A stretch of DNA of 10,566 bases, from positions 1 through 10,566 of the forward strand of contig DOHN01000191.1 in the NCBI GenBank assembly GCA_003535195.1. The letters run 5' to 3'. The notes beneath the pieces were generated by a model that was not told the origin of the DNA, ran no database searches, and saw only the letters and a program-made list of their open reading frames with translations. A program made the position numbers and the translations under genes. This document shows positions 5,332 to 10,566 of this stretch, in pieces. Each line of letters opens with the position of its first letter. The stretch's first letter is position 1. This DNA is from Ruminiclostridium sp. Lineage in GTDB: Bacteria; Bacillota; Clostridia; DSM-8532.

Positions 5332-6363
5332 TTACCGGCCATATATTCCAGTTTCAGCAGGGTTACTTTTTTTTAAGATATCCAGGTTATCCAGTGTCTT
5401 TCCTGTTCCGATGGCCACACAGGACACTGCTTCATCGGCAATGATCACGTCAATGCCCGTTTTGTATGACAGGAGCTTGTCCAGCCCGTAAATCAGGCTT
5501 CCTCCGCCCGTCATGACAATACCCCTGTCGCTGATATCGGCCGCGAGCTCGGGCGGCGTCCTCTCAAGCACCGAATGGACCGCTTCAATAATGTTGGAAA
5601 CTGGCTCTTCAAGAGCCTCCATAAGCTCGGTTGAGGAAACGCTGATGGTTTTGGGAAGGCCCGATACCAGGTTTCGTCCCCGAATATCCATAGAGATTTC
5701 CTTCTCTCTTGGGAAAACCGTCCCGATATTGATTTTAAGCTCTTCTGCCGTTCTTTCTCCAACCATGACATTGTGCTTTTTGCGCATATACCGCACAATG
5801 GCTTCATCAATTTTGTCCCCGGCCACCTTGATGGATGAGCTGACAACGATTCCGCCCAGAGAGATAACGGCAATATCGGTAGTACCGCCGCCAATATCCA
5901 CCACCATGCTTCCGCAAGCCTTGGTAATGTCAATACCTGCGCCAATAGCCGCTGCAATGGGCTCTTCAATCAGGTAGGTCTTTCTTGCGCCTGCCTGTAT
6001 GGCGGCGTCTTCAACAGCGCGTTTTTCAACCTCGGTAACGCCTGAAGGGACACAGATCATAACCCTGGGCTTAAAAAGCTTAAAAAAGCTTTTGGCACAG
6101 ACCTTATTCAGAAAATGCTTGAGCATTTTTTCAGTCACATGATAATCTGAAATAACGCCATCCCGTAAGGGGCGTATGGCCACAATATTTCCCGGGGTTC
6201 TGCCCAGCATCTTCCGGGCTTCTTCACCAACCGCCAGAATCCTGTCACTATTTTTATCTATTGCCACAACCGACGGTTCCTGAAGGACGATCCCTTTGCC
6301 CTTAACATATACCAGAATCGTTGCGGTTCCTAAATCTATACCAATATCCATCCCAAGTCCCAA
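5332..6363 (-). CDS. mbl: MreB/Mbl family rod-shape cytoskeletal protein
   Basis: A 343-residue bacterial actin that forms membrane-associated filaments guiding lateral wall synthesis. Actin-fold ATP-binding motifs are clear: phosphate 1 DIGIDLGTA (6-14), phosphate 2 VVDIGGGTTDIAVISLGG (154-171), the IEEPIAAAIGAGI segment (132-144) and the adenosine motif VMTGGGSLIYGLD (283-295). Position immediately after spoIIID and before flhO/flhP favours Mbl (or MreBH) over MreB proper, which usually heads an mreBCD cluster. The chosen start is TTG at 6361-6363, with AAAGGGG nine bases upstream. It yields an N-terminus of normal length; the alternative ATG at 6349-6351 would shorten it by four residues and lacks a good ribosome site. 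Its own promoter lies downstream of the spoIIID terminator, so the mobile element should not silence it. Confidence 0.95.
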   Translation of the reverse strand: MGLGMDIGIDLGTATILVYVKGKGIVLQEPSVVAIDKNSDRILAVGEEARKMLGRTPGNIVAIRPLRDGVISDYHVTEKMLKHFLNKVCAKSFFKLFKPRVMICVPSGVTEVEKRAVEDAAIQAGARKTYLIEEPIAAAIGAGIDITKACGSMVVDIGGGTTDIAVISLGGIVVSSSIKVAGDKIDEAIVRYMRKKHNVMVGERTAEELKINIGTVFPREKEISMDIRGRNLVSGLPKTISVSSTELMEALEEPVSNIIEAVHSVLERTPPELAADISDRGIVMTGGGSLIYGLDKLLSYKTGIDVIIADEAVSCVAIGTGKTLDNLDILKKSNPAETGIYGR

Positions 6364-6461: not shown

Positions 6462-6486
6462 AAAAAGTCGGTATTAACCGACTTTT
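6462..6486 (-). terminator. Rho-independent terminator of spoIIID
   Basis: A perfect 10-bp stem: AAAAGTCGGT (read from 6486) pairs with ACCGACTTTT around a 4-base loop, followed by a run of T on the minus strand (6466-6462). The spoIIID stop codon TAA (6474-6476) falls inside the loop, so the gene ends within its own terminator. With the element inserted, the same hairpin would end recombinase transcription. Confidence 0.85.
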
Positions 6487-6632
6487 CTGCCATCTCTGCC
6501 ATATTTCATCCTTGTTGCTTCGCCTCCACGGATATGACGTTCCGCTTTGTTTTCATCCAGTATCCTTTTTACTTGCCCCGCCATGGACGGATCCAGCTTT
6601 GAAAGTCTCTCCGTTACATCTTTGTGAACGGT
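6474..6632 (-). pseudogene. spoIIID: 3' fragment of spoIIID, split by the mobile element
   Basis: Reading the minus strand from 6632, 52 codons and a TAA stop encode the C-terminal part of SpoIIID, the mother-cell DNA-binding regulator that acts with sigma-E and leads to sigma-K. Recognisable blocks are TVHKDVTERLSKLDPSMAG, QVKRILDENKAERHIRGG and EATRMKY. They align with B. subtilis SpoIIID from about Thr36 onward (STVHKDLTERL, INPDLANEVKEILD, RHLRGGEATKLKY). Homology ends abruptly upstream of the ACC codon at 6630-6632: the expected Ser is replaced by element sequence. About 35 N-terminal codons, including the start and most of the HTH, are missing and should lie at the far end of the element. 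The fragment is out of frame with, and overlapped by, the recombinase 3' end. It is followed by mbl, the usual neighbour. It may be a reversible split gene rather than a dead one. Confidence 0.93.
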
Positions 6633-8157
6633 TGTCATCAACTAGAACGGTTTCGTCCAGACCCAAATCCCCCAGCAAGCGCAGGTAAATATCAACGTTG
6701 CCGTCCTTGTCCACTTCAATTTTCTGAATAACCTGTTTCAGCTGGGCGTTGGTAAGCTGCCGCACATCAGTAATACTCTCAATGGTGTCAAAGGTTTTCT
6801 TAATAATATCCTCCAGCTGCTCACCCTTGTCAATGTTAAAGGAAACCAGCTTCAAATCATTCTCAAGGCGGGCAATCTCATCTTTCATGCCGCCGATCCG
6901 ATCATTCAGCTCCTGCCGGGTAATCAGATCATCGGCGTACATATCCATGTACTTTTGGCGAGTCTTGCCCAGCTTTGAAAGACGCTGGCGCAGCTCCTTT
7001 TCATACTCTACATTGTCGCTCTTGGCCTTATAGAGCCGGTTAAACTCCCCCACGACATAGGAAATGATATTCTTTTTCCCTTTCAGCACACCGGCGAAAT
7101 AGTCTTGCAGCGCAGCAATCAGCTCGTCCTCGTCTACGGTGGTACGGTTTGGACAGGAATCTGCCCCTTGCCCATTATGGCCGCTGCATACCCACCGGAC
7201 ATAGGTATTCTTGTAGGTGCGCACGGTACGCCGGAACGACCAGCCGCAGTCCTTGCATTTAATCAGGGTGGAAAACAAATATTTATTGCTTTGCCGCTCC
7301 CGGTCAACCTGAAAAGCTTTACCTCGCTGCTCCATGAGTTGTACGGCCTTTTCGTACTGCTCCGGCTCCACAATCCGCAGATCGGGGCGCTCGGTCACAA
7401 GCCACTCGGTTTCGTCCTTTTCTGCCCGCTGGCCGGTAAGAAAGTCGGTGACTTCCTGTTTTCCGTTAATGATCTTTCCAGTATATAACTCATTGGTAAG
7501 AATACGGCATACAGCGTTCTGTGACCAGATACAATCACGCTTTGTGCGTATTCTTTTTTCATTCAGCATTTTGGCAATTTTAGCGCCGCCATGCCCATCG
7601 TTTAGATACCAGTGATAAATCTGCCGCACAACCTCGGCTTCCTGCTCATTGATGGCCAGATTAAAATAGTCACCGGCCGTTTTGTCATACCCATAAACAA
7701 TATTGGGCACACGGCCTTTTTCGGCGTTGAGCTTTTTACCAAACTTCACACGCTTGGAGGTGTTGGCACTTTCCTCCTGTGCCAGAGCACCGAAGATGGT
7801 TAGTACAAATTCACTGTTGCCCAAAACCGTCATATTGGCCGTCAAAAATGTGGTTTCGATGCCTAGAGCTTTGAGCTTGCGGGTGCTTTGCAGCAGATCC
7901 ACCGTATTGCGGGCAAATCGTGAAATATCCTTGACCACAACCATATCAAAAAGGCCGCTTTCAGCGTCTTTCATCAGCCGCAGAAATTCCTTGCGGTTTT
8001 TTGTCTTTGTGCCGGAAATGCCCTCGTCCGCATATAGGCGCACAAGAGTATGTCCGTTCTTCTGTGTAAACTCGGTGAAGAACCGCTTTTGTGCGTCTAA
8101 GCTGTTGAGCTGATCCTCTTTGTCGGTAGACACCCGGCAATAGGCTGCTATATTCAT
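6553..8157 (-). CDS. Large serine recombinase (integrase/excisionase of the element)
   Basis: A 534-residue site-specific recombinase that cuts and rejoins attachment sites through a covalent serine-DNA link. N-terminal resolvase domain: YCRVST (6-11) with catalytic Ser10 and Arg8, DEGISGT (44-50), and KDISRFARN (76-84) with Arg80 and Arg83. A recombinase domain follows (about 155-260), including GYDKTAG and AKIAKMLNEKRIRTK. A zinc ribbon comes next, with C301, C304, C324 and C335. A coiled-coil region lies at about 371-440. ATG at 8155-8157 has an AGAGG site about eight bases upstream. The last 25 residues, after Asn509, are encoded by spoIIID DNA in another frame, so the native protein is about 509 residues plus whatever tail the circular form supplies. 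It lies at the element edge and faces the spoIIID 3' part, as expected of the enzyme that made this insertion. Its skin counterpart in B. subtilis is SpoIVCA. Confidence 0.96.
   Translation of the reverse strand: MNIAAYCRVSTDKEDQLNSLDAQKRFFTEFTQKNGHTLVRLYADEGISGTKTKNRKEFLRLMKDAESGLFDMVVVKDISRFARNTVDLLQSTRKLKALGIETTFLTANMTVLGNSEFVLTIFGALAQEESANTSKRVKFGKKLNAEKGRVPNIVYGYDKTAGDYFNLAINEQEAEVVRQIYHWYLNDGHGGAKIAKMLNEKRIRTKRDCIWSQNAVCRILTNELYTGKIINGKQEVTDFLTGQRAEKDETEWLVTERPDLRIVEPEQYEKAVQLMEQRGKAFQVDRERQSNKYLFSTLIKCKDCGWSFRRTVRTYKNTYVRWVCSGHNGQGADSCPNRTTVDEDELIAALQDYFAGVLKGKKNIISYVVGEFNRLYKAKSDNVEYEKELRQRLSKLGKTRQKYMDMYADDLITRQELNDRIGGMKDEIARLENDLKLVSFNIDKGEQLEDIIKKTFDTIESITDVRQLTNAQLKQVIQKIEVDKDGNVDIYLRLLGDLGLDETVLVDDNRSQRCNGETFKAGSVHGGASKKDTG
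6618..6652. other. Element-chromosome junction (attachment site, one end)
   Basis: The boundary is placed where SpoIIID coding homology stops, at about 6632-6633. The 8-mer GAACGGTT (plus strand) spans the boundary at 6626-6633 and recurs inside the element at 6645-6652, 19 bases away. GTTG and CAAC arms (6631-6634 and 6639-6642) form a small inverted repeat at the element edge. The crossover dinucleotide cannot be fixed without the other junction. The position next to the large serine recombinase is typical of such elements. Confidence 0.75.
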
Positions 8158-8242: not shown

Positions 8243-8276
8243 AAAAGAAAAGGAGCCATTCACGTTAAATGGCTCC
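8243..8276 (-). terminator. Rho-independent terminator after the small protein gene
   Basis: GGAGCCATT pairs with AATGGCTCC (8252-8260 and 8268-8276) around a 7-base loop, followed on the minus strand by TTTTCTTTT (8251-8243). It overlaps the stop codon of the small upstream gene, and it isolates that gene from the recombinase promoter. Confidence 0.9.
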
Positions 8277-8460
8277 CAGTTGTTTCCAACTCGTCAGGGT
8301 AGGTAAAGGGCGGTGCAGCCGCAGAAATCTCTGCTGCGGTCTGCATAGCCTGTTCCACCTTTTCCTGATTGGCTTCTATAAAGATTTTCAATATGTAGTC
8401 GGCGGTTGCTTCCGCCGTGTTGGGGTTGTGAAAACGAAAATTCAGTTTTGATTTTGCCAC
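8260..8460 (-). CDS. Small protein of unknown function upstream of the recombinase
   Basis: A 66-residue protein with the core KSKLNFRFHNPNTAEATADY followed by ILKIFIEANQEKVEQAMQ, then a Pro/Ala-rich acidic tail. It has no membrane segment or cysteine. Small proteins of this size commonly sit beside recombinases in Firmicutes conjugative elements. A resemblance to the transposon-encoded TnpW type is possible, but I do not recognise it firmly. GTG at 8458-8460 is preferred as start: a strong AAAGGAGG lies about 12 bases upstream, while the TTG nine bases further up sits only three bases from that site. The gene ends inside a strong terminator, so it is a separate unit or the last gene of the trbL operon. 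A role in control of excision can be imagined but is not shown. Confidence 0.65.
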   Translation of the reverse strand: MAKSKLNFRFHNPNTAEATADYILKIFIEANQEKVEQAMQTAAEISAAAPPFTYPDELETTGSHLT

Positions 8461-8654
8461 GGCAGCCAACCACCTCCTTTTTGCTTGTCCTGTCCTTTCA
8501 TTTGTATGCTATTTTCAAAAAGAATAGCACGGGTGTATTTTGTAAGGTATTAGCGGTATTTGCGTTTGCTCCGGCGTTAGCCGATGGGGTTTGGGGCAAT
8601 GCACCAACAAGCAGAAACGGTAAAACCAGCCAGCGGCGGTTTTTCGGTTTCGGT

Positions 8655-8736: not shown

Positions 8737-9573
8737 CTACATGGCATTGCAGATAGATTTTGCAAGCCTGCCGGAAGAAAAAACAGCCATCACCAGCACC
8801 AGTGAATAAAGCAGACATTGGAACAAAACGCCGGTTACATCACCACTCGCCAAGCCGCCGTTTGGAATGCTGACGGCCAGCGTCCCAAACATACTCATAG
8901 CAATATAGATTAGTACACCTTGCACACAAACCGCTGCAAAGGATTTAAGAAAATTTTTGCCGATCATCCCCAGTTCACCGCCGCCCAGTGTGGCAACCGG
9001 CACGGCTGCAATTGCGGTATAAATGTAAATTTCCACCATGCGTCCAATGACCACAACCGTAATAAGTAAGGACGAGAACTTAAATGTAATCCATATAATT
9101 GTTACTTGGACACACAAGAACAGCTTCGGAAACATTCCGCTCATGTTTTCTACCGCCGTCCGCAAGGTATCCAGATCAGCCGTTACGGAACCTCCAGGTG
9201 TACCGCCTGAAATGTTGCCAATTATGTTGCTGCTTAATTCAAAGATTGCACCTAAAATTTGTGGGGTCATATCAACGGCCATTTTACAAAGCACAAATTT
9301 TATCATCACCTTAAAGATCATTTCAGCCCCGAATGTCGCACCGGCTCCAGCTCCATCAATGCGAGTACTGGCGTTATACAGCTCCAATGTGAAAATAAGG
9401 GCTAATACAACATAGGCCACCGGCATGGCTGCGCTTTGGCAGATACCCTGCACCCATGAATAAATCGTGCTGTTGAACTGCGCCGGGGTCTGAACCAGCA
9501 AACCGTTATCCCCTCCCATGCTGGTAACGCCGTTCAAAATATCCTCGATTACACCAATTATGTAATCCTCCAT
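8737..9573 (-). CDS. TrbL/VirB6-like conjugation channel membrane protein
   Basis: A 278-residue polytopic membrane protein of the type found in type IV secretion modules of Firmicutes conjugative elements, where TrbL/VirB6 proteins form the inner-membrane channel. Hydrophobic segments are near residues 48-66, 84-112, 150-172, 174-196, 213-235 and 247-266. A Gly/Ser/Thr-rich loop (121-131) follows the second. The motif AIAAVPVATLGG at 188-199 is typical of these channel proteins. ATG at 9571-9573 directly follows the stop codon of the upstream membrane peptide gene, with GGAGG eight bases before it, so the two are translationally coupled. The usual downstream partners PrgI and VirB4 are absent: the next gene is the small recombinase-linked protein. 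The protein itself appears full length. Family call is by topology and context rather than a sharp catalytic motif. Confidence 0.8.
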   Translation of the reverse strand: MEDYIIGVIEDILNGVTSMGGDNGLLVQTPAQFNSTIYSWVQGICQSAAMPVAYVVLALIFTLELYNASTRIDGAGAGATFGAEMIFKVMIKFVLCKMAVDMTPQILGAIFELSSNIIGNISGGTPGGSVTADLDTLRTAVENMSGMFPKLFLCVQVTIIWITFKFSSLLITVVVIGRMVEIYIYTAIAAVPVATLGGGELGMIGKNFLKSFAAVCVQGVLIYIAMSMFGTLAVSIPNGGLASGDVTGVLFQCLLYSLVLVMAVFSSGRLAKSICNAM

Positions 9574-9985: not shown

Positions 9986-10354
9986 TTACAGCTGGATTTC
10001 TTGCCCAAGAATTTCACCGGTAATGCCTATATTTTGCAGGGCTGGCGTTATAAAATCAGCCCTGTCCAAAAGCTCGTACTCATAACGATAGCCTGAATGC
10101 GAACGTATGCGATACTGTTTCAAATAACCCGCTTCTTTTAACTCCTGCCACGCACCATCAAACGCCCTCTGCCCTAAACAAGACACTTTGCGCAAGTGAT
10201 TTTTGTAAAGTATAAAATCTGGTATGGTGATGTAGCTTTGTATGATGGCGTACAGACCTCGTGCCTTACATGAAAGCTCCGTGTTTTGCAGGGCTTCATT
10301 TGACACCTGTGTAAAAGGATTTTGCCGCTTTCTAAAACCGCCGTCTGTTCCCAT
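9986..10354 (-). CDS. Short winged-helix protein, N-terminal type of element replication initiators
   Basis: A 122-residue protein beginning GGFRKRQNPFTQVSNEAL, then LSCKARGLYAIIQSYI and a winged-helix-like region to YLKQYRIRSHSGYRYEYELL. This pattern matches the N-terminal DNA-binding domain of replication initiators and DnaD-like proteins in Firmicutes elements. Those proteins are often twice as long or more, with an extra C-terminal domain that is missing here, so this may be a short family member or a truncated one. The start chosen is ATG at 10352-10354 with AAAGGGG eight bases upstream. The ATG at 10388-10390 would add 12 residues read from inside the upstream gene and lacks such a site. 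It starts five bases after the HTH stop, so the two are coupled. The iteron-like array directly downstream supports a DNA-binding replication or regulatory role. Confidence 0.75.
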   Translation of the reverse strand: MGTDGGFRKRQNPFTQVSNEALQNTELSCKARGLYAIIQSYITIPDFILYKNHLRKVSCLGQRAFDGAWQELKEAGYLKQYRIRSHSGYRYEYELLDRADFITPALQNIGITGEILGQEIQL

Positions 10355-10359
10355 GGCAA

Positions 10360-10566
10360 CTACCCCTTTTTTGATTGATCGTTCAGCCATTCCACAAATG
10401 CGGCTTTCGGAATTTTAATTCTGCGGCCTACTCGGACAACTGGAAACCCATTGCTTTTCACCAGTTCATAGGCCGACACCTTACTGATTGCCATGATGGA
10501 AGCAACATCACTGACATTGAGAACCAGCGGCAGTTCATCAAAGGACGTTGCTTCCGTATTTGATTT
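10360..10566 (-). CDS. Excisionase-type helix-turn-helix DNA-binding protein (5' end outside the window)
   Basis: The last 68 codons are visible on the minus strand; the start lies at or beyond the window edge. The core LPLVLNVSDVASIMAISKV, then SAYELVKSNGFPVVRVGRRI and KIPKAAFVEWL, is a MerR-like HTH of the excisionase family type, with the typical wing RVGRRIKIP. Such proteins act as recombination directionality factors or as regulators of replication genes in integrative elements. The TAG stop (10360-10362) is followed five bases later by the start of the winged-helix gene, and the end of this gene supplies that gene's ribosome binding site. The gene is far from the recombinase in the linear map, although the circular form would bring the two ends together. 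Whether it controls excision or replication cannot be told here. Confidence 0.85.
   Translation of the reverse strand, partial: KSNTEATSFDELPLVLNVSDVASIMAISKVSAYELVKSNGFPVVRVGRRIKIPKAAFVEWLNDQSKKG

What the first reader, a model, noticed from the sequence alone, without database searches (positions are those of the whole stretch)
6474..6640. A mobile element splits the sporulation regulator gene spoIIID: a skin-like arrangement
The 52 C-terminal codons of SpoIIID, its own terminator and its usual neighbour mbl are intact, but homology stops at about 6632 in the HTH recognition helix and is replaced by an element carrying a large serine recombinase. In B. subtilis, sigK is split by skin and restored in the mother cell by the recombinase SpoIVCA; other sporulation genes are split by prophage-like elements. 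A spoIIID-splitting element would place a DNA rearrangement one step upstream, at the regulator that itself drives sigK. I do not recall a described spoIIID case, but I cannot search. The alternative is a recent insertion that has simply blocked sporulation.
Basis: partly seen in the sequence, partly recalled or inferred. Interest (0 to 1): 0.95.

Follow-up and report, generated by a model that had tools for sequence, protein, structure and literature searches.

The report
Excisable element splitting spore regulator spoIIID
A mobile DNA element breaks spoIIID, the gene for a key spore-making regulator, at the same codon in this bacterium and in dozens of related Clostridia, and it likely cuts itself out while a spore is being made, which would restore the gene; that step is untested.

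Summary
The window ends inside an element whose large serine recombinase abuts the 3' half of spoIIID; no 5' half and no intact copy is in the 81.6%-complete assembly. The far end cannot be checked in this genome because the upstream flank is not assembled. Relatives answer the question. Of the 80 closest recombinases in named genomes, 76 are followed by a spoIIID 3' half. Of 50 of those genomes searched, 47 hold spoIIID only as halves, 45 of them both halves. Joining at the shared His codon gives an unbroken spoIIID frame in 24 of 24 named and 8 of 8 unnamed cases. A conserved ~59-aa protein with no known family lies between the 5' half and the recombinase in 24 of 24 elements: a candidate directionality factor. 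Upstream of it is a sigma-E-like promoter that the recombinase lacks (20 of 55 versus 2 of 63 at p<=0.05). Four IMG/VR contigs carry the joined attP. I read these as skin-like gene-intervening elements one step above sigK, spreading horizontally with defence cargo. Sporulation-timed excision is inferred, not shown. I found no spoIIID case in the open-access library listings seen.

The parts
6474..6635 (-). 3' part of spoIIID (SpoIIID Pfam positions 34-79), open frame to its stop
   Evidence: Pfam PF12116 E 2.6e-22; only SpoIIID match in the assembly
6624..6626 (-). His codon (CAC) that holds the inferred crossover core CA; attL
6644..6652 (-). AACCGTTCT element-side att arm; the reverse complement AGAACGGTT lies at the other end of relatives' elements
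   Evidence: Window sequence; other ends and attP contigs
6553..8157 (-). Large serine recombinase; its last 26 codons are read from the junction region and spoIIID DNA
   Evidence: Pfam PF00239, PF07508, PF13408; PHROG integrase; tail
8263..8460 (-). Small conserved protein (HNPN motif), candidate recombination directionality factor, GTG start; Shine-Dalgarno at 8470-8480
   Evidence: Family found in 73 of 80 named loci; no Pfam, NCBIfam or PHROG family; role inferred
8501..8529 (-). Sigma-E-like promoter TGCTATT-N14-CATACAAA upstream of the small ORF
   Evidence: Consensus score p 0.01 but trained matrix p 0.19 with its best hit elsewhere; coordinates; same position and 14-nt spacing in the family
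8737..9573 (-). TrbL/VirB6-like conjugation protein of the element
   Evidence: PF19478 E 4.5e-12
9986..10390 (-). Replication-initiator/HTH-like protein of the element
   Evidence: PHROG matches, best E 4e-9
5332..6363 (-). mbl, host flank beside spoIIID
   Evidence: PF06723 E 3.9e-147; same order in relatives L038 and L039

Best explanation
A mobile element with a large serine recombinase interrupts spoIIID at the His codon of its helix-turn-helix, and it likely excises in the mother cell, when sigma-E is predicted to switch on a small candidate directionality factor, which would restore spoIIID. Shown: in relatives the break is at the same codon, both halves lie on one strand, joining them gives an unbroken frame, and the joined attP exists in metagenome contigs. 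Inferred: that the ~59-aa conserved ORF is the directionality factor; that sigma-E drives it; that excision is confined to the terminal mother cell so that the forespore chromosome keeps the element; and, for this genome, that the 5' half lies at the unassembled far end. Unlike in C. difficile skin, the trigger could not depend on SpoIIID, so sigma-E would have to act without it.
For: 76 of 80 related recombinases abut a spoIIID 3' half. 47 of 50 genomes searched hold halves only, 45 both halves, 37 of those on one contig and one strand. Unbroken frame on joining in 24 of 24 and 8 of 8. Candidate directionality factor between 5' half and recombinase in 24 of 24, present in 73 of 80 loci. Sigma-E-like site upstream of it: 45 of 78 at p<=0.05 against 4 of 82 for recombinases, 20 of 22 for the spoIIID positive control; with a matrix trained on spoIIID promoters 20 of 55 against 2 of 63 and 5 of 61, and in the expected position in 41 of 55 against 12 of 63 and 11 of 61. 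attP form in four IMG/VR contigs. SpoIVA kept in 45 of the 47 split named genomes and in 17 of 18 of the other set, G000 included. The layout parallels skin of C. difficile and SP-beta, with an RDF under a sporulation promoter (passages).
Against: No expression, junction-timing or spore data. The window's own promoter is not significant by the trained matrix (p 0.19). dN/dS of split halves is higher than of intact genes from other taxa (0.23 and 0.14 against 0.05), which allows relaxed constraint. Insertions look recent and horizontal, so open halves may reflect time before insertion. Two split named genomes (G426, G444) and G196 have no SpoIVA match. The far end of this element was not found.
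Confidence: 0.72

Rival explanations
1. Plain inactivation: the element uses spoIIID as a convenient conserved attachment site and simply blocks sporulation in its carriers; it excises only for transfer.
For: Elements spread horizontally: recombinases 99.4-99.6% identical sit in hosts whose spoIIID 3' halves differ by 20-23%. The window's element carries a conjugation-type gene. dN/dS of split halves is higher than in intact genes from other taxa. Insertion at other sites also occurs (L104, L112, L140). No statement on spores of carriers was found.
Against: Sigma-E-like promoter at a fixed place upstream of the candidate directionality factor; no stop in any of 77 3' halves; SpoIVA kept in 45 of 47 split named genomes.
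Confidence: 0.22
2. The far end of the element carries a complete replacement, so that a full spoIIID is kept and the 3' half is a scar, as in genome G056.
For: G056 has a full spoIIID followed by two 3' remnants that begin at the same site.
Against: No full copy in 47 of 50 named genomes; the far ends read are plain 5' halves in 24 of 24 and 8 of 8. Not testable in the window's own assembly.
Confidence: 0.03
3. Assembly or binning artefact.
For: The window is a short contig of a fragmented, incomplete assembly of 213 contigs.
Against: The same junction occurs in many separate assemblies, among them a single-contig genome, G163, and isolate genomes. The flank keeps the gene order of relatives.
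Confidence: 0.01

Closest known systems
skin of Clostridioides difficile (sigK; recombinase CD1231, directionality factor CD1234; PMC5025042, passages)
   Same: Large serine recombinase not under sigma-E, separate small directionality factor with a sporulation-type promoter, gene halves rejoined in frame.
   Different: Target is spoIIID, not sigK. CD1234 needs sigma-E and SpoIIID; here SpoIIID cannot be required. Timed excision is untested here.
SP-beta in spsM of Bacillus subtilis (SprA/SprB; PMC6957869, passages)
   Same: Still-mobile element in a sporulation gene; the directionality factor has a sigma-E/K promoter, the recombinase does not.
   Different: Phage, late envelope gene; here a regulator gene and, in the window, a conjugation-type gene.
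gin in gerE of Bacillus cereus (GirC/GirX; PMC5595907, passages)
   Same: Non-phage element that splits a small gene for a mother-cell regulator; GirX is 42 aa.
   Different: Late regulator in Bacillus; different directionality factor.
yin in yabG of Clostridium botulinum (PMC10747680, passages)
   Same: Clostridial gene-intervening element with a predicted directionality factor and a putative sporulation promoter.
   Different: Target yabG, putative sigma-K promoter, one isolate as described there.

Membership tests
Sporulation gene-intervening (skin-like) elements | Sporulation gene split in two halves on one strand by an element | tested here: met
   Relatives: 37 of 50 named genomes with both halves on one contig and strand. 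Window: 3' half only.
Sporulation gene-intervening (skin-like) elements | Precise excision would restore the reading frame | tested here: met
   24 of 24 and 8 of 8, by joining in a script; not in the window's genome, whose 5' half is not assembled
Sporulation gene-intervening (skin-like) elements | Site-specific recombinase next to an attachment site | tested here: met
Sporulation gene-intervening (skin-like) elements | Directionality factor or recombinase under a sporulation sigma factor | tested here: inconclusive
   Sigma-E-like sites enriched upstream of the candidate factor across the family; the window alone is p 0.01 or 0.19 by method; expression untested
Sporulation gene-intervening (skin-like) elements | Excision in the mother cell during sporulation | not testable with these tools
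   Needs cultures; attP contigs show that the joined form exists, not when
Integrative and conjugative element | Conjugation genes (relaxase, coupling protein, type IV secretion) | tested here: inconclusive
   TrbL_2 in the window; the contig ends before the rest; many related elements are only 4-6 kb
Prophage | Capsid, portal, terminase or tail genes | tested here: inconclusive
   None of five window element proteins matches a structural PHROG; most of the element is off the contig

The most novel reading that the evidence does not exclude
In many Clostridia, mother-cell development is gated by a DNA cut at its first regulator: a horizontally spreading family of elements has made the SpoIIID recognition-helix codon its dock, carries a new class of directionality factor fired by sigma-E without SpoIIID, turns spoIIID into a hotspot for anti-phage genes, and swaps the recombinase's C-terminal tail whenever it integrates or excises.
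Probability: 0.5. Interest if true: 0.93.

Novelty: new variant of a known kind. Interest (0 to 1): 0.86.

Why it matters
If excision is sporulation-timed, a genome rearrangement sits directly on the sigma-E to SpoIIID step that precedes sigK, in dozens of species, cultured commensals among them. The mother-cell programme of these bacteria would then depend on a mobile element, which would explain how such elements occupy a conserved sporulation gene at little cost. Genome-based calls of spore formation that ask for an intact spoIIID could misjudge carriers. The recombinases come with a defined attachment site inside a conserved coding stretch and a candidate directionality factor, so they can be tested as a two-protein system.

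Tried and rejected
Far end in this genome: sought with the Pfam model, an N-terminal protein and the upstream neighbour. The flank is not assembled, so this stays open.

Sigma-E control of the recombinase itself: not supported as a general feature. Sites upstream of it are at chance level, 4 of 82 at p<=0.05 and 2 of 63 nonredundant.

Vertical inheritance of the insertion: weak support only (Mantel r 0.108, 78 of 2000 permutations as high, 77 sequences). Some pairs are close in both genes. Using mbl as host marker failed: it was found downstream only in the window.

G051 as proof of mixed excised and integrated forms: only two contigs share the branch sequence and no third arm is in the assembly; suggestive only.

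Longest shared exact string as core: worked for G163 and G089 and gave meaningless cores for the six others; replaced by the shared His codon.

Not counted as two-ended cases: G269 and G335 (3' half, plus a 5' match with stop codons), G196 and G257 (3' half), G179, G121 and G051 (5' part), G026 and G031 (matches cut by contig ends). Of the 80 named loci, 30 genomes were not searched for the 5' half, since the tool takes 50 per call. In the class survey (391 genomes) the match list was cut, so split genomes were picked by weak best E-values: a lower bound.

Spore formation of named carriers: no statement found in the passages and listings seen; the Sporofaciens description is only cited there.

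PDB profile of the small protein: no credible match (best E 0.033). No fold search was run on its model.

The sigma-E consensus is recalled and its weights were set by hand; anchors on the best score, so the conserved CATA there is partly by construction. The matrix was trained on the 22 spoIIID 5'-half promoters only; intact ones were not picked up by my pattern.

Literature: searches listed every paper found; only the top 20 of 632, 15 of 20 and 15 of 903 were seen. Subscription papers are mostly not held.

Full report
What is in the window. The minus strand carries the last part of spoIIID (6474-6635; Pfam positions 34-79) beside an intact mbl. Where the N-terminus should be, a large serine recombinase runs into the junction, and its frame continues through spoIIID DNA to 6553. 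Further into the element are a small ORF (8260-8469), a TrbL/VirB6-like protein (8737-9573) and a replication-initiator-like protein. The contig ends at 10566. The assembly (3.10 Mb, 213 contigs, 81.6% complete) has no other SpoIIID match and no 5' half. It also lacks a close copy of the gene that precedes spoIIID in relatives, so the far side is not assembled. SpoIVA is present. Of the 13 sampled genomes of the same genus, 12 have one near-full-length SpoIIID match and G008 has none.

Relatives with both ends. A survey of 391 genomes of the class (280 with a match) pointed to genomes with weak, doubled SpoIIID matches. Coordinates and sequences show eight with both halves (G163, G078, G091, G317, G089, G309, G326, G373), broken at STV-H-KDV. 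G163 is a single-contig genome with the halves about 65 kb apart. Recombinases of the window's kind abut the 3' half in G317, G309 and G257, with 79, 74 and 66% identity to the window's. More distant recombinases lie at the same break in G078, G091, G326 and G163, so more than one recombinase lineage uses the site.

Named genomes. A scan with these four recombinases found 259 relatives and kept the best 80. In 76 of the 80 a spoIIID 3' half follows at once; the others are L104, L112 and L140, and L152 with only 84 nt held. Hosts include Extibacter muris, Schaedlerella arabinosiphila, Sporofaciens musculi, several Blautia, Agathobaculum, Angelakisella and Pseudoflavonifractor. In 50 of these genomes searched with the SpoIIID model, 47 hold halves only: 45 both halves, 37 of them on one contig and strand, about 4 to 70 kb apart. 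G433 has an intact gene; G405 and G411 have no match. SpoIVA was found in 47 of the 50, in 45 of the 47 split ones.

Core and restored frame. Both ends share the His codon. In G163 the ends share 17 identical bases and the reconstructed attP has inverted arms. Four IMG/VR contigs show the recombinase followed by the joined attP in place of spoIIID; three of them are identical over the 1600 nt compared. This is the excised, or not yet integrated, form.

Candidate directionality factor. A small ORF with an HNPN motif is present in 73 of the 80 named loci; the seven without it have 30 to 3612 nt held upstream of the recombinase. It lies between the 5' half and the recombinase, same strand, in 24 of 24. 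It is also in the window and in the four attP contigs. It matches nothing in Pfam, NCBIfam or PHROGs, nor credibly in the PDB. Its predicted fold is two helices (mean pLDDT 81, pTM 0.41). Its role is inferred from size, constant company and position.

Sigma-E-like promoter. With a recalled consensus, the best site upstream of this ORF beats shuffles at p<=0.05 in 45 of 78 sequences, against 4 of 82 upstream of recombinases and 20 of 22 upstream of spoIIID 5' halves as positive control. With a matrix trained on those 22 promoters the counts are 20 of 55 nonredundant against 2 of 63, and 5 of 61 in DNA 250-450 nt upstream. The site sits 22-62 nt from the ORF core in 41 of 55 against 12 of 63 and 11 of 61 (Fisher tests). 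The family pattern is GGACTATTTT, a 14-nt spacer after the 7-mer, and CATAG. The window has TGCTATT-N14-CATACAAA at 8501-8529: p 0.01 by consensus, but 0.19 by the matrix, whose best hit lies elsewhere. In C. difficile skin the recombinase is constitutive and its directionality factor is under sigma-E and SpoIIID (PMC5025042); in SP-beta the factor has a sigma-E/K promoter (PMC6957869). The layout here matches those, except that SpoIIID cannot be a prerequisite for its own restoration.

Mobility and selection. Recombinases 99.4-99.6% identical occur in hosts whose spoIIID 3' halves differ by 20-23%, and 98.6% identical ones in hosts differing by 47%; a few pairs are close in both. The elements thus spread horizontally. 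No stop occurs in 77 3' halves. Median dN/dS is 0.23 (3', 325 pairs) and 0.14 (5', 64 pairs), against 0.05 (78 pairs) for 38 intact genes from other taxa; nearest-neighbour pN/pS is 0.35 over 16 sequences. This speaks against long-dead genes but cannot separate selection before and after insertion, and leaves room for relaxation. Cargo of relatives includes AbiL-like pairs, a PDC-M07A-like ATPase and, in G163, Cas9.

Verdict. Best explanation: a skin-like, sporulation-excised element at spoIIID, confidence 0.72; plain inactivation is the main rival. Published cases named in the passages I read concern sigK, spsM, spoVFB, gerE and yabG. Searches for a spoIIID case showed none in the listings seen; passages of a recombinase survey (PMC10083194) and of a gut mobile-element survey (PMC6907783) do not name spoIIID.

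Noticed in passing
window 6553-6652; L104-L183; L184 and L187: Integration replaces the recombinase's C-terminal tail. In 23 of 24 loci (L175 gave no tail) the host site supplies a stop one residue past the junction, while the circle form would encode a conserved tail like TYGSNKIERFIW, seen in L184 and L187; the window's CAC codon gives a longer run-on tail. The arm is also an att site, so DNA constraint may explain it.
   Followed up: partly
L034 (genome G056): Intact spoIIID followed by two 3' remnants that start at the same site, with an AbiLi/AbiLii-like pair between: scars of serial insertion at spoIIID.
   Followed up: partly
genomes G440, G444, G448, G451: More than one spoIIID 5' half or part of one beside a single 3' half, as if elements had inserted in series.
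   Followed up: no
L103 (genome G226): An extra spoIIID 5' part about 2.3 kb upstream of a full spoIIID, another possible scar.
   Followed up: no
G407 (record of L108, Pseudoflavonifractor sp. Marseille-P3106), contig C20: SpoIVA matches in two pieces (model 1-150 and 145-237), same strand, about 252 kb apart: a second split sporulation gene, or a rearrangement or scaffolding error.
   Followed up: no
L104, L112, L140: Close relatives of the recombinase not followed by spoIIID; two of these genomes (G405, G411) have no SpoIIID match and one (G433) has an intact gene, so other sites can be used.
   Followed up: partly
L132, L134, L138, L150, L163, L173: An AAA ATPase gene (six loci), with a partner gene in five, inside small spoIIID elements; in L132 they match AbiLi and AbiLii: the site looks like a dock for defence genes.
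   Followed up: partly
L084 11190-14303 (genome G163): A Cas9-like protein inside the 65-kb spoIIID-splitting element.
   Followed up: partly
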